64,000 bases of DNA from Mesorhizobium sp. L-2-11 (GTDB lineage Bacteria > Pseudomonadota > Alphaproteobacteria > Rhizobiales > Rhizobiaceae). The position numbers were made by a program, and so were the translations under genes. The notes beneath the pieces were generated by a model. That model ran no database searches. It was not told where the DNA came from and saw nothing but the letters and a program-made list of their open reading frames with translations. The stretch is from the NCBI RefSeq assembly GCF_016756595.1, contig NZ_AP023257.1, positions 5,844,001 to 5,908,000 of the forward strand. The letters run 5' to 3'. Below are positions 2,907 to 25,770 of the stretch, piece after piece. Every line of letters begins with the position of its first letter. Position 1 is the stretch's first letter.

Positions 2907-3026
2907 TCTTTGTTTGAGCATCGGATTTTCCCAAAACCGGTGCCCACTTTTGGGTCCGATGCTCTGTCTTTGTTTGAGCATCGGATTTTCCCAAAACCGG
3001 TGCCTACTTTTGGGTCCGATGCTCCA
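2907..3026. repeat. Two tandem copies of a 60-base palindromic intergenic repeat
   Basis: Two 60-base units start at 2907 and 2967 and differ at one clear position. Each contains a 49-base palindrome (2916-2964 and 2976-3024) whose arms are GAGCATCGGA and TCCGATGCTC. This is the structure of short rhizobial intergenic mosaic repeats. The position just after the kinase stop suggests a role in mRNA 3'-end stability or simply a repeat landing site. A short minus-strand reading frame across both units repeats itself and is not a credible gene. Confidence 0.85.
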
Positions 3027-22526: not shown

Positions 22527-23963
22527 ATGATGCCGCCTGCAAAAAAGGAAGTCCGCCCGTCGAGCCGCGGAGGACGTATCCGCACGCCTGCCTTCGTGAA
22601 AAATCAACGTGGTGTGAAAAACTGGAAGGAAGTCGGCGCCTGGCTGGCGTGGCGCGGCATCGAGGATATCGAATGCATCACGCCCGACCAGGCCGGTGTT
22701 GCGCGCGGCAAGATGATGCCGTCGAAGAAATTCACCTCCAACACCTCGCTGGCGCTGCCTTCGGCCGTGTTCATGACGACGATCTCCGGCGGCTACCCGG
22801 AGAACGGCAACGGCTTCAACTATCCGGAAGACGACGGCGACCTCAAGCTGATGCCGGACCTTTCGACACTGACCGTGGTGCCGTGGGAAGAGGACCCGAC
22901 GGCGGCGGTCATCTGCGACCTCGTCCACCAGGACGGCCGCTCGGTCGAGTTCACGCCTCGCAACGTGCTGAAGCGTGTGCTTGCCGCTTACGACAAGCGC
23001 GGGCTGAAGCCGGTGGTGGCGCCCGAGATCGAGTTCTACCTGGTGCGCAAGAATCCCGATCCGGACTACCCGCTGACCCCGCCGGTCGGGCGTTCGGGCC
23101 GGGCGATCGGCGGTGGCGCCGGCTACTCGATCGCCGGCGTCAACGAGTTCGACGAACTGATCGACGACATCTACCATTTCTCCGAAAGCCAGGGCCTGGA
23201 GATCGATACGCTGATCCACGAGGAAGGCGCCGGCCAACTCGAGATCAATCTGCGCCACGGCGATCCGATCGAACTGGCCGACCAGGTGTTCATGTTCAAG
23301 CGCACCATCCGCGAGGCGGCGCTCAAGCATGAGATCTATGCCACCTTCATGGCCAAGCCGATCCAGGGCCAGCCCGGGTCGGCGATGCATATCCACCAGT
23401 CGATCATCGACAAGAAGACCGGCAGGAACGTCTTTTCCGCAGAGGACGGCTCGGAAACCGAGGCCTTCTTCCATTTCCTCGGCGGCATGCAGAAACATGT
23501 GCCGAACGCGCTGGTGATGTTTGCGCCCTACGTCAATTCCTACCGCCGGCTGACGCAGTCGGCTTCGGCGCCGGTCAACAACAAATGGGGTTACGACAAC
23601 CGCACCACCGCCTTCCGCGTCCCGCGCTCCGACCCGGCAGCCAGGCGCGTCGAGAACCGCATCCCCTCCTCCGACGCCAATCCCTATCTGGCGCTGGCCG
23701 CATCGCTCGCCTGCGGGCTGATCGGCATGACCAACAAGATCAAGGCCGAACCGCCGGTTCTCACCACCGCCAACGAGGCCGAGATCGACCTGCCGCGCAG
23801 CCTGCTCGAGGCGGTCGACCTGTTCGAAGCCGACGAGGAACTCTGCGCGCTGCTCGGCAAGTCGTTCGCCGCCACCTATGCGGCGATCAAGCGGGCGGAA
23901 TTCGAGACCTTCATGGAAGTGATCAGCCCGTGGGAGCGGGAGTATTTGTTGTTGAATGTGTGA
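22527..23963 (+). CDS. Glutamine synthetase-like enzyme, probably gamma-glutamylputrescine synthetase
   Basis: A 478-residue glutamine-synthetase fold enzyme. ATP/metal-site motifs are PEIEFYLV, EEGAGQLEINL, GSAMHIHQS and NSYRRLTQSASAP; the C-terminal adenylylation segment of housekeeping GlnA is absent. A PuuA-like role, joining glutamate to putrescine or another amine, is supported by the FAD oxidase gene downstream and by the pot importer in the same window. Two ATGs (22527, 22530) overlap a weak GGTGA ribosome site. The family is broad, so the substrate stays open. Confidence 0.82.
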   Translation: MMPPAKKEVRPSSRGGRIRTPAFVKNQRGVKNWKEVGAWLAWRGIEDIECITPDQAGVARGKMMPSKKFTSNTSLALPSAVFMTTISGGYPENGNGFNYPEDDGDLKLMPDLSTLTVVPWEEDPTAAVICDLVHQDGRSVEFTPRNVLKRVLAAYDKRGLKPVVAPEIEFYLVRKNPDPDYPLTPPVGRSGRAIGGGAGYSIAGVNEFDELIDDIYHFSESQGLEIDTLIHEEGAGQLEINLRHGDPIELADQVFMFKRTIREAALKHEIYATFMAKPIQGQPGSAMHIHQSIIDKKTGRNVFSAEDGSETEAFFHFLGGMQKHVPNALVMFAPYVNSYRRLTQSASAPVNNKWGYDNRTTAFRVPRSDPAARRVENRIPSSDANPYLALAASLACGLIGMTNKIKAEPPVLTTANEAEIDLPRSLLEAVDLFEADEELCALLGKSFAATYAAIKRAEFETFMEVISPWEREYLLLNV

Positions 23964-24019
23964 GGGGAGTAGGGGAGTACGGCAATAGGGGAGTACGGCA
24001 GTAGGGCAGTAGGGCAGTA
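23964..24019 (+). repeat. Left array of seven 8-base repeats (GGGCAGTA type)
   Basis: Starting directly after the stop of the glutamine-synthetase-like gene, seven octamers follow without gaps: GGGGAGTA twice, CGGCAATA, GGGGAGTA, CGGCAGTA and GGGCAGTA twice. The unit nearest the inner gene is the exact reverse complement of the repeat in the right array at 24404-24475. Confidence 0.9.
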
Positions 24020-24033
24020 GGGGGCGGCACGTA

Positions 24034-24399
24034 ATGGCGAAGATCGAGTCCTACAGGGATCTGATCGTCTGGCAGCAGGCAATGGACCTGGCAGTATCAA
24101 TTTATGAAGTGACACGAGCTTGGCCGAAAGACGAGCTCTATGGAATGACAGGTCAGGTGCGTCGGGCAGCTACCTCCGTGCCTGCCAACATCGCTGAGGG
24201 TTACGGCCGAGAGAGCCGAGCTTCCTATCAACAATTTCTCAGGATCGCCCAAGGATCACTCAAGGAACTGGAGACGCATCTTATGATTGCGCACCGTGTC
24301 GGAATCGCCTCGCACGAGACGATCGAACCTTTGATGGACCGCAGCGAGAGCGTAGGGACGCTATTGCGCCTTCTGATCCGCAAATTGTCACCTGAATAG
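24034..24399 (+). CDS. Four-helix-bundle protein (23S rRNA intervening-sequence protein / Avd-like)
   Basis: A 121-residue helical protein with the family motifs DLIVWQQAMDL near the start, DELYGMTGQVRRAATSVPAN and IAEGYGRES in the middle, and the YQQFLRIAQGSLKELET helix. Members are often encoded inside rRNA intervening sequences or accompany diversity-generating retroelements; neither context is present here. The cationic surface suggests nucleic-acid binding. It is flanked on both sides by inverted octamer arrays. No good ribosome site is seen; the left array ends 14 bases before ATG 24034. Confidence 0.9.
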   Translation: MAKIESYRDLIVWQQAMDLAVSIYEVTRAWPKDELYGMTGQVRRAATSVPANIAEGYGRESRASYQQFLRIAQGSLKELETHLMIAHRVGIASHETIEPLMDRSESVGTLLRLLIRKLSPE

Positions 24400-24403
24400 C
24401 TCC

Positions 24404-24475
24404 TACTGCCCTGCTGCCCTACTGCCCTGCTGCCCTACTGCCCTACTGCCCTACTGCCCTACTGCCCTACTCCCC
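24404..24475 (+). repeat. Right array of nine 8-base repeats (TACTGCCC type)
   Basis: Nine contiguous octamers: TACTGCCC and TGCTGCCC alternate at first, then four perfect TACTGCCC, ending with TACTCCCC. The array begins 4 bases after the stop of the four-helix-bundle gene and ends 11 bases before the ATG of the next gene, taking the place where its ribosome site should be. Confidence 0.9.
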
Positions 24476-24486
24476 TACCGAGCATC

Positions 24487-25770
24487 ATGCCCTACCAATC
24501 CCCAATCTCCCCCGGCCGCTCCTGGTATGAGGACACCGCCGGCCCACGGCCCGAATACAAGGCGCTCGACGGTGACCGGACATGCGACGTCGTGATCGTC
24601 GGCGGCGGCTTTACCGGCCTGTCGGCGGCGGTGCACCTGGCCAGGGCCGGCAGCAATGTCGTGCTGATCGAAGCGCATCGTTTCGGCGACGGCGCTTCGG
24701 GCCGCAATGGCGGCCAGCTCGGCACTGGTCAGCGCGCCTGGGCCGAAGAGCTCGAAGCGGAATACGGCTTCTCCCGAGCCAAGGCGCTGTTCGACCTCGC
24801 CGAAGAGGCCAAGGCGCATCTCCTCGAATTCGCCGCTGTCAACAAGATCGAGATCGACTACATGCCCGGCCAGATGTCGGTGGCGCACAAGCAGCGCTAC
24901 GTCGACGACTACAAGGCGCATGCCGAGATCATGGCGAACCGCTTCCACTATCCGCACATCAGCTTCATGGACGCCAGGGAGACGGCGGAGCGGTTGGGCT
25001 CGGCGCGCTATTTCGGCGGCACCCGCGACACCGGCACCGGCCACATCCATCCGCTGAAGCTGGTGATCGGCACGGCAAAAGTGGCGGCGCAGGCGGGCGC
25101 GCAGCTGTTCGAGCAGACGCCGGCGACCGCCATCGCGTCCGTTGGCGGCAAGGTCAGGGTCACGACGCCGAAAGGCACGATATCAGCCGAGAAATGTCTG
25201 ATCGGCGTCAACGCCCATGGCGGCACGCTCGAGCCGATCAGTGCCGCGCATATCATGCCGATCGGCTCCTTCATCGGCGCGACGGTGCCGCTCGGGGATT
25301 CAAACGTGCTGCCGGGCGGTGAGGCGGTCGACGATTCCCGCTTCGTCGTTCGCTATTTCCGCAAATCGACGGATGGGCGACTGCTGTTCGGCGGGCGCGA
25401 GATCTACGCCGTCAACGATCCGAAAGACATCCATGTCCACATCCGCCGGCAGATCGCCGAGATTTACCCTGACCTCAGGGACGTCGAGATCACCCATGGC
25501 TGGGGCGGCTATGTCGGCATCACGATGCCGAGAAAACCGTTCGTGCGCGAGGTGATGCCCAATGTGATCTCGGTCGGCGGCTATTCCGGCCACGGCGTCA
25601 TGCTGTCGAACTTTTTCGGCAAGCTCTATGCCGAAACCGTCGCCGGCAACCGGGACCGGCTGAGGCTGATCGAGGACCTGAACATCCCGGCCTTTCCCGG
25701 AGGCCGGCGCTTGCGCGCGCCTCTTCTGTTTTTTGCACTCAACTGGTATGCCTTGAGGGACCGCATATAA
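24487..25770 (+). CDS. FAD-dependent amine oxidoreductase, PuuB-like
   Basis: A 427-residue DAO-family flavoprotein. The FAD-binding motif is VVIVGGGFTGLSAAVHLA near residues 35-52, followed by GASGRNGGQLGTGQR, and a C-terminal GGYSGHGVMLSNFFGKL closes the cofactor site. The best-known relatives are gamma-glutamylputrescine oxidase PuuB and similar N-gamma-glutamyl amine oxidases, which fits the upstream puuA-like gene. There is no ribosome site directly upstream because the octamer array ends there, so translation may be reduced. Confidence 0.85.
   Translation: MPYQSPISPGRSWYEDTAGPRPEYKALDGDRTCDVVIVGGGFTGLSAAVHLARAGSNVVLIEAHRFGDGASGRNGGQLGTGQRAWAEELEAEYGFSRAKALFDLAEEAKAHLLEFAAVNKIEIDYMPGQMSVAHKQRYVDDYKAHAEIMANRFHYPHISFMDARETAERLGSARYFGGTRDTGTGHIHPLKLVIGTAKVAAQAGAQLFEQTPATAIASVGGKVRVTTPKGTISAEKCLIGVNAHGGTLEPISAAHIMPIGSFIGATVPLGDSNVLPGGEAVDDSRFVVRYFRKSTDGRLLFGGREIYAVNDPKDIHVHIRRQIAEIYPDLRDVEITHGWGGYVGITMPRKPFVREVMPNVISVGGYSGHGVMLSNFFGKLYAETVAGNRDRLRLIEDLNIPAFPGGRRLRAPLLFFALNWYALRDRI

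What the first reader, a model, noticed from the sequence alone, without database searches (positions are those of the whole stretch)
23964..24475. Four-helix-bundle gene framed by inverted arrays of one 8-base repeat, splitting a puuA-puuB pair
Seen: (GGGCAGTA)7 directly after one stop codon, a 121-residue IVS/Avd-type four-helix-bundle gene, then (TACTGCCC)9, which is the exact inverse repeat, with mirrored variant units (GGGGAGTA outermost on the left, TACTCCCC on the right). Removing the block leaves the flanking genes 11 bases apart. Known: this protein family lives in rRNA intervening sequences and retroelements, where it binds RNA. Inference: a transposase-less mobile or satellite unit, or one spread by host machinery that recognises the octamer array. 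The array also removes the ribosome site of the downstream oxidase.
Basis: partly seen in the sequence, partly recalled or inferred. Interest (0 to 1): 0.8.

Follow-up and report, generated by a model that had tools for sequence, protein, structure and literature searches.

The report
Hairpin repeat arrays with matching protein
A small bacterial gene sits inside a DNA hairpin built from a repeated 8-letter word, gene-less hairpins of the same word lie elsewhere in the genome, and many relatives of this gene in other bacteria come with their own 7- or 8-letter word, which suggests an unrecognised partnership between a protein and a genome-wide repeat.

Summary
The block is real: seven imperfect octamers, a PF05635 four-helix-bundle gene, nine inverted octamers, between two operon genes. 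It is one case of a wider architecture. In 140 PF05635 loci (80% non-redundant, many phyla), 127 of 275 adjacent flanks carry tandem arrays, 109 of period 7, against 5 of 251 distant flanks. Arms are inverted copies of one unit, and arrays read inward have more G than C in 84 of 93 loci. In this genus protein subfamilies largely have their own unit and one operon site each. 15 of 15 other array loci viewed in this genome are gene-less inverted pairs. Gene presence goes with arrays elsewhere: in a Xanthomonadaceae-type family 30 of 37 genomes with the accB-accC-type gene carry GGGAATC arrays, against 17 of 112 without; within-genus p=5e-5. At fixed sites arrays change length and unit while the stem is kept. 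The gene is under purifying selection (dN/dS about 0.08). Best reading: a REPIN-RAYT-like partnership of a site-bound gene and dispersed cognate hairpins, with a protein that shows no transposase domain. The biochemical step is not shown, and arrays can persist without the gene.

The parts
22527..23963 (+). upstream operon gene, glutamine-synthetase family (puuA-like), 478 aa
   Evidence: Gln-synt_C E=1e-103
23964..24019 (+). left (5', G-rich) arm: seven imperfect 8-base units (GGGGAGTA x3, CGGCAATA, CGGCAGTA, GGGCAGTA x2)
   Evidence: pairs with the right arm in the predicted RNA fold
24034..24399 (+). four-helix-bundle gene, 121 aa, PF05635 / TIGR02436
   Evidence: dN/dS about 0.08 among same-site orthologues; sequence homologue of solved 2gsc and 2rld
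24404..24475 (+). right (3', C-rich) arm: nine 8-base units (TACTGCCC x6, TGCTGCCC x2, TACTCCCC outermost)
24487..25770 (+). downstream operon gene, FAD-dependent oxidoreductase (puuB-like), 427 aa
   Evidence: DAO family E=7.5e-63

Best explanation
The block is the gene-bearing member of a population of hairpin repeats. Shown: the PF05635 gene is kept at one operon site in many genus members and is under purifying selection; it is enclosed by inverted arrays of its subfamily's unit; gene-less inverted arrays of the same unit are dispersed in the genome; across genomes, presence of the gene goes with more cognate arrays at other sites; both arms of a hairpin change together. Inferred: the protein, whose solved relative is a homopentamer, recognises its own 7-8-base unit in a single-stranded or hairpin form (RNA first choice, ssDNA second), and this recognition maintains, lengthens or spreads the arrays, as a RAYT does for REPINs but without a transposase domain. 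In an operon transcript the element would form a long double-stranded stem with the coding sequence in its loop, as in the 23S rRNA intervening sequence that RNase III excises in Coxiella. Confidence: about 0.8 that protein and dispersed arrays are functionally coupled; about 0.45 for the maintenance-and-spread step as worded.
For: Architecture: arrays in 127 of 275 adjacent flanks against 5 of 251 distant and 0 of 275 shuffled; inverted match at score 14 or more in 66 of 136 loci against 3 of 542 cross-locus pairs, p=2e-47. In the genus the unit follows the subfamily: TAGGGCAG, TAGGGGAG, TAGGCAG, AGTGAGT, TAGCGAA, GTGAATG, GAATTGAA types; arrays on both sides in 61 of 82 loci, one side in 17, none in 4; nearly every subfamily at one site. 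Trans coupling: 30 of 37 genomes with the accB-accC-type gene have (GGGAATC)n against 17 of 112 without, Fisher p=4e-13, within-genus permutation p=5e-5 over 14 genera and 63 genomes; the gene's surroundings gave 0 pattern matches in 20 of 20 loci inspected, 11 of them from these 37 genomes. In the window's genus, own locus subtracted, octamer medians are 15.5 with the gene (n=40) against 7.0 without gene or remnant (n=64), p=0.0016; TAGGCAG medians 12 (n=25) against 5 (n=94), p=0.003; crossed controls p=0.73 and 0.84 (one-sided). Stem kept while units change: halves match within a genome (median 18, n=47) more than between genomes at one site (10, n=742), p=6.5e-11. Homopentamer and heptamers before an S23 ORF: PMC4990558 (passages).
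Against: Arrays persist without a detected gene: G107 has no homologue yet 8 octamer and 15 heptamer matches, and G057 has 82 TAGGCAG matches without a detected B gene. With remnants counted as absent the octamer test weakens to p=0.012; that test is not corrected for phylogeny. Seven of 37 genomes with the accB-accC-type gene have no GGGAATC match; two of them (G449, G444) have a GGGATTC-type array at the gene, but G414, also GGGATTC there, has 24 GGGAATC matches. About half of the wide-set flanks show no array. No new insertion of an array pair was caught: none of the 8 sites gave a spanning match in 6 near or, in a cut list, 15 further relatives; an ordinary intergenic gap would look the same. 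Across distant members unit and protein similarity do not correlate overall (Mantel rho 0.049, p=0.12); likeness appears only above about 55% identity. No binding or copying was measured.
Confidence: 0.5

Rival explanations
1. Domesticated RNA regulator: the protein binds its repeat in operon transcripts and controls processing or stability; the arrays are kept by host selection as regulatory stems, not as a self-spreading repeat.
For: The gene-bearing copies sit inside operons, here right after a stop codon; stems are kept by paired change; strong purifying selection; the Coxiella intervening sequence is excised by RNase III (PMC4990558, abstract passage).
Against: Array length varies strongly between relatives at one site, and no-array alleles exist at sites 1, 2 and 8 and at puuA-puuB, so no single site looks essential.
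Confidence: 0.25
2. Passive passenger: the arrays are ordinary slippage repeats that happen to bracket an intervening-sequence-type selfish gene; there is no action in trans.
For: Copy number and unit variants change fast; arrays outlive the gene.
Against: Period 7 or 8 dominates and is concentrated at the gene's borders; arms pair by inversion; more G than C inward in 84 of 93 loci; the trans association is specific to the cognate unit.
Confidence: 0.15
3. Miniature transposon (MITE) moved by a conventional transposase that recognises the arrays as terminal inverted repeats.
For: Inverted ends, gene-less short copies, one spacer with a decayed gene start (E=0.005), repeated presence/absence changes at the window site.
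Against: Arrays lie at the same sites in relatives; the gene-bearing copies keep one site per subfamily with one exception; I saw no target duplication when comparing filled and empty puuA-puuB junctions by eye; ends are tandem arrays of variable length rather than fixed ends.
Confidence: 0.07
4. G-quadruplex-driven repeats: arrays are kept for G4 structure and the gene is incidental.
For: GGG-containing units occur here and in Xanthomonas (Rehm 2015, PMC4692102, section 10 read).
Against: Several cognate units lack a GGG run (TAGGCAG, GTGAATG, TAGCGAA, GAATTGAA), so G4 cannot be the shared property.
Confidence: 0.03

Closest known systems
REPIN-RAYT systems (PMC8049555 abstract and outline seen; PMC3116915 listing only)
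   Same: A resident gene associated with hairpin-forming repeats that are dispersed in the genome and persist as a population (RAYT details recalled).
   Different: The protein is a four-helix bundle with only PF05635-type models detected, not a transposase; repeats are tandem 7-8-mers of variable length, not fixed palindromes; the unit differs by subfamily.
23S rRNA intervening sequences with an S23 ORF (Coxiella, PMC4990558, passages)
   Same: Same protein family inside a stem; heptamer repeats upstream of the ORF with strain-variable copy number.
   Different: That one lies in an rRNA gene and the paper reports probable non-expression and decay; here the element lies between protein genes, the ORF is under purifying selection and cognate arrays exist genome-wide.
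Heptamer repeats of Xanthomonas and Nostoc (Rehm 2015, PMC4692102, section 10 and passages)
   Same: GGGAATC arrays, many in convergent inverted pairs with variable length; the same type of heptamer borders the PF05635 gene in Xanthomonas loci here.
   Different: 'four helix' and '23S' do not occur in that paper's text; it treats the arrays as G4-forming simple repeats.
TAACTGA heptamer repeats of Beggiatoaceae and cyanobacteria (PMC4679880, passages)
   Same: Dispersed intergenic heptamer arrays; the author speculates about a repeat-binding protein.
   Different: Almost only direct repeats there (one inverted set); 'four helix' does not occur in the text.
Avd proteins of diversity-generating retroelements (PMC10053308, passages)
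   Same: Reported homology to PF05635.
   Different: The two genes bordering the window element are not reverse transcriptases; no template or variable repeat was sought.
PF05635 genes in cas loci (PMC3936711, passages)
   Same: Same protein family (18 genes in cas loci, often with cas4 or cas6).
   Different: No repeat arrays around the gene are mentioned in the passages seen; the two genes bordering the window element are not cas genes.

Membership tests
PF05635 / TIGR02436 four-helix bundle | profile score over curated cut-off | tested here: met
   128.8 against 33.8 bits and 122.9 against 24 bits
REPIN-RAYT | resident gene encodes a tyrosine (REP-associated) transposase | tested here: not met
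   only 23S_rRNA_IVP and related four-helix or hypothetical-protein models match
REPIN-RAYT | gene at a fixed site and bordered by its own repeat | tested here: met
   (with the exceptions told there)
REPIN-RAYT | dispersed hairpin repeats accompany the gene | tested here: met
   (association, not causation)
REPIN-RAYT | gene product moves the repeats | not testable with these tools
   no fresh insertion seen
23S rRNA intervening sequence | located inside a 23S rRNA gene | tested here: not met
   between two protein-coding genes
23S rRNA intervening sequence | S23-family ORF enclosed by a stem | tested here: met
   (predicted fold)
23S rRNA intervening sequence | stem cut by RNase III | not testable with these tools
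   needs RNA data
MITE / insertion sequence | target-site duplication and new sites among relatives | tested here: inconclusive
   no duplication seen at puuA-puuB by eye; no spanning match for 8 sites in 6 near relatives
diversity-generating retroelement (Avd) | adjacent reverse transcriptase | tested here: not met
   the two bordering genes are a glutamine-synthetase-family and an FAD-oxidoreductase gene; genes further out were not scanned

The most novel reading that the evidence does not exclude
A widespread class of bacterial repeat system: a non-enzymatic ring protein reads a short word, one unit per subunit along a single strand, and drives copying of that word into both arms of hairpins across its host genome, rewriting arrays in place when the resident protein type changes. 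It would explain why heptamers are so common among long simple repeats in bacteria, with the 23S rRNA intervening sequences as a special case.
Probability: 0.3. Interest if true: 0.95.

Novelty: categorically new. Interest (0 to 1): 0.82.

Why it matters
PF05635 proteins are common and two are solved (2gsc, 2rld), yet the papers seen here give them no established function. Heptamer repeats are said to be the most abundant class of 5-11-base repeats in most genomes of a survey cited in PMC4679880 (introduction passage), without a known cause. The data here tie the two together in many phyla and give matched protein-unit pairs, natural gene-minus genomes and empty sites, so both questions become directly testable. 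If the protein acts on its own word, it is a compact sequence-specific repeat-recognition module unlike transposases or CRISPR proteins.

Tried and rejected
Rejected: roaming gene-bearing transposon (site-bound gene); G4 as the common property (units without GGG); pure slippage (inverted pairing, polarity, trans association). Led nowhere or weak: overall Mantel test of protein and unit similarity (p=0.12); the first arm comparison used arms chosen for their match, so it was repeated with unselected halves; the search for insertion-polymorphic sites gave no spanning match.

Literature: ten searches ran. Only open-licence PMC papers are held, and four listings were cut (20 of 22, 20 of 367, 20 of 804, 10 of 36 papers).

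Limits: dN/dS rests on 123 of 528 pairs with dS between 0.1 and 1.2; the rest fell outside that range. The 37-genome class used a score gap chosen after seeing the list, and its accB-accC site was seen in 11 of the 37. In one search, G070 was dropped (locus not fetched) and 14 remnant genomes were dropped from the p=0.0016 comparison. Tree states are by interval length, not by reading the gene.

Full report
Observation. The block is as described, with small corrections. Seven 8-base units follow the stop codon of a glutamine-synthetase-family gene, but they are imperfect. A 121-residue PF05635 gene follows, then nine inverted units. The transcript is predicted to fold into a long stem with the coding sequence in the loop (-249 kcal/mol, z = -7.25). 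The nearest named homologues are Mesorhizobium proteins, so the genus is taken to be Mesorhizobium (inference).

The same word elsewhere in the genome. Three octamers with up to 3 mismatches match 98 times (overlapping), the reversed pattern 0 times. I viewed 15 further array loci (L033-L047). By eye, 15 of 15 are inverted pairs with the G-rich arm first; none holds an intact copy of the gene. One spacer (L041) holds a decayed piece resembling the start of such a gene (58% over 19 residues, E=0.005). More array places exist than were viewed (the list was cut; a place at 299376 was not viewed). The second PF05635 gene of the genome (L048) is framed by a different word, GTGAATG.

Words and sites by subfamily. 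98 of 119 genus genomes have a homologue. I sorted 82 fetched loci into subfamilies; 61 have arrays on both sides of the gene, 17 on one side, 4 on neither. The unit follows the subfamily with some mixed cases such as L111. All 35 A-type loci (TAGGGCAG and TAGGGGAG words) sit at the window's site, 22 of 22 B-type between an acyl-CoA-dehydrogenase-like and a 3-hydroxyisobutyrate-dehydrogenase-like gene, 7 of 7 F-type between tolB-like and pal-like genes; C and E types share a nuoC-nuoD-like site, and one of 7 D-type loci (L097) groups there while the other 6 share another site with the single C2 locus (neighbour names are my reading of translations). A-type fragments at other places exist, for example G089 (C4, its empty window site on C23).

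General architecture. PF05635 was found in 52 of 299 phylum-wide genomes, 48 over the cut-off, and in 0 of 14 control genomes. With 80 named loci from many phyla and 34 from viral contigs, 160 usable loci reduce to 140 at 80% protein identity. Of 275 adjacent flanks 127 carry a tandem array, 109 of period 7 and 15 of period 8; 5 of 251 distant flanks and 0 of 275 shuffled flanks do. Left flanks match the reverse complement of their own right flank at score 14 or more in 66 of 136 loci, against 3 of 542 mismatched pairs. About half of the loci thus show no detectable array by this measure. Arrays read inward from the border have more G than C in 84 of 93 loci and 116 of 128 arrays, and more purine than pyrimidine in 105 of 128 (20 the other way). 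PF05635-like genes lie in 35 plasmid records, mostly cyanobacterial; of 7 regions fetched, 5 show inverted arrays of other words on both sides by eye and 2 near-identical ones are clear on one side only.

Trans coupling. In a family of 149 genomes related to Xanthomonas by protein similarity (family identity inferred; named loci of Xanthomonas, Luteimonas, Dyella and Rhodanobacter carry the gene before an accC-like gene), 37 genomes carry this gene type; the accB-accC-like site was seen in 11 of them. 30 of 37 have exact (GGGAATC)n matches (median 18, largest 250), against 8 of 28 with only a weaker PF05635 match and 9 of 84 with none; within-genus permutation p=5e-5. The gene's surroundings gave 0 matches in 20 of 20 loci inspected (11 from these genomes, 9 from named relatives), so the arrays counted lie elsewhere. 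In the window's genus the same holds more weakly after subtraction of the own locus, with null crossed controls. Arrays do persist without the gene (G107, G057), and unit type at the gene does not always predict the counts (G414).

Dynamics at fixed sites. The 8 array sites queried gave no spanning match in 6 near relatives; four of these sites were read, 20 stretches in all, and all hold arrays whose length and units differ (one, L346, with a degenerate left arm). At sites 1, 2 and 8, read in 11, 15 and 11 further stretches, the word itself changes (octamer, TAGGCAG, TAGTGAR, TAGCGAA types), as a rule on both arms, sometimes with a recognisably similar spacer (by eye). No-array alleles were seen at site 1 (G048), site 2 (G009, G043) and site 8 (G021, G028, G052), and a scan of the whole stretches found no 6-9-base array in any of the six. 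Halves of one hairpin match each other better than halves from different genomes at the same site (median 18 against 10, p=6.5e-11): paired change that keeps a stem. At the window site at least 20 of 119 genomes are cleanly empty, and three more that I read hold gene-less arrays of other words (L305, L311, L331); other genomes with short intervals were not read. On a tree of 61 flanks (38 long intervals, 20 empty, 3 other arrays) presence changes at least 11-12 times (shuffled mean 17; 6 of 1000 shuffles as low), by gain, loss or exchange, which the data do not separate.

The protein. dN/dS is about 0.08, so it is used. Its solved relatives are 2gsc (XCC0516) and 2rld. PMC4990558 cites XCC0516 as a homopentamer and reports two to three heptamers before the S23 ORF of the Coxiella intervening sequence, which RNase III excises (passages). 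That is a similar layout in an rRNA gene.

Reading. I commit to a functional partnership of a resident ring protein and a dispersed population of cognate hairpins. It works like REPIN-RAYT but is not a member: no transposase model matches. It shares the ORF family and stem of rRNA intervening sequences but lies outside rRNA. Whether the protein spreads, maintains or merely reads the hairpins is open; the regulator reading is the main rival. I call it categorically new because it fails a defining feature of each known kind of system tested; if the regulator reading holds, it would rather be a new variant.

Noticed in passing
L352, L353 (Calothrix brevissima plasmids 1 and 2): A PF05635 gene framed by GGGTGTA-type arrays lies in matching gene neighbourhoods of two plasmids of one strain, beside a phage-integrase-family gene.
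   Followed up: partly
L330 (G107:C1:3214700-3217700): A mosaic pair with octamers on the left arm and TAGGCAG heptamers on the right.
   Followed up: no
L344 (G117:C5:88440-88850): Heptamers lie outside octamers on the left arm and replace them on the right arm, as if a new word were entering both arms.
   Followed up: no
L375 (site 1, G048) and L393 (site 2, G043): The array is absent and the interval is about 0.8-1 kb longer than usual.
   Followed up: no
window 2907-3024: Two nearly identical 60-base direct repeats.
   Followed up: no
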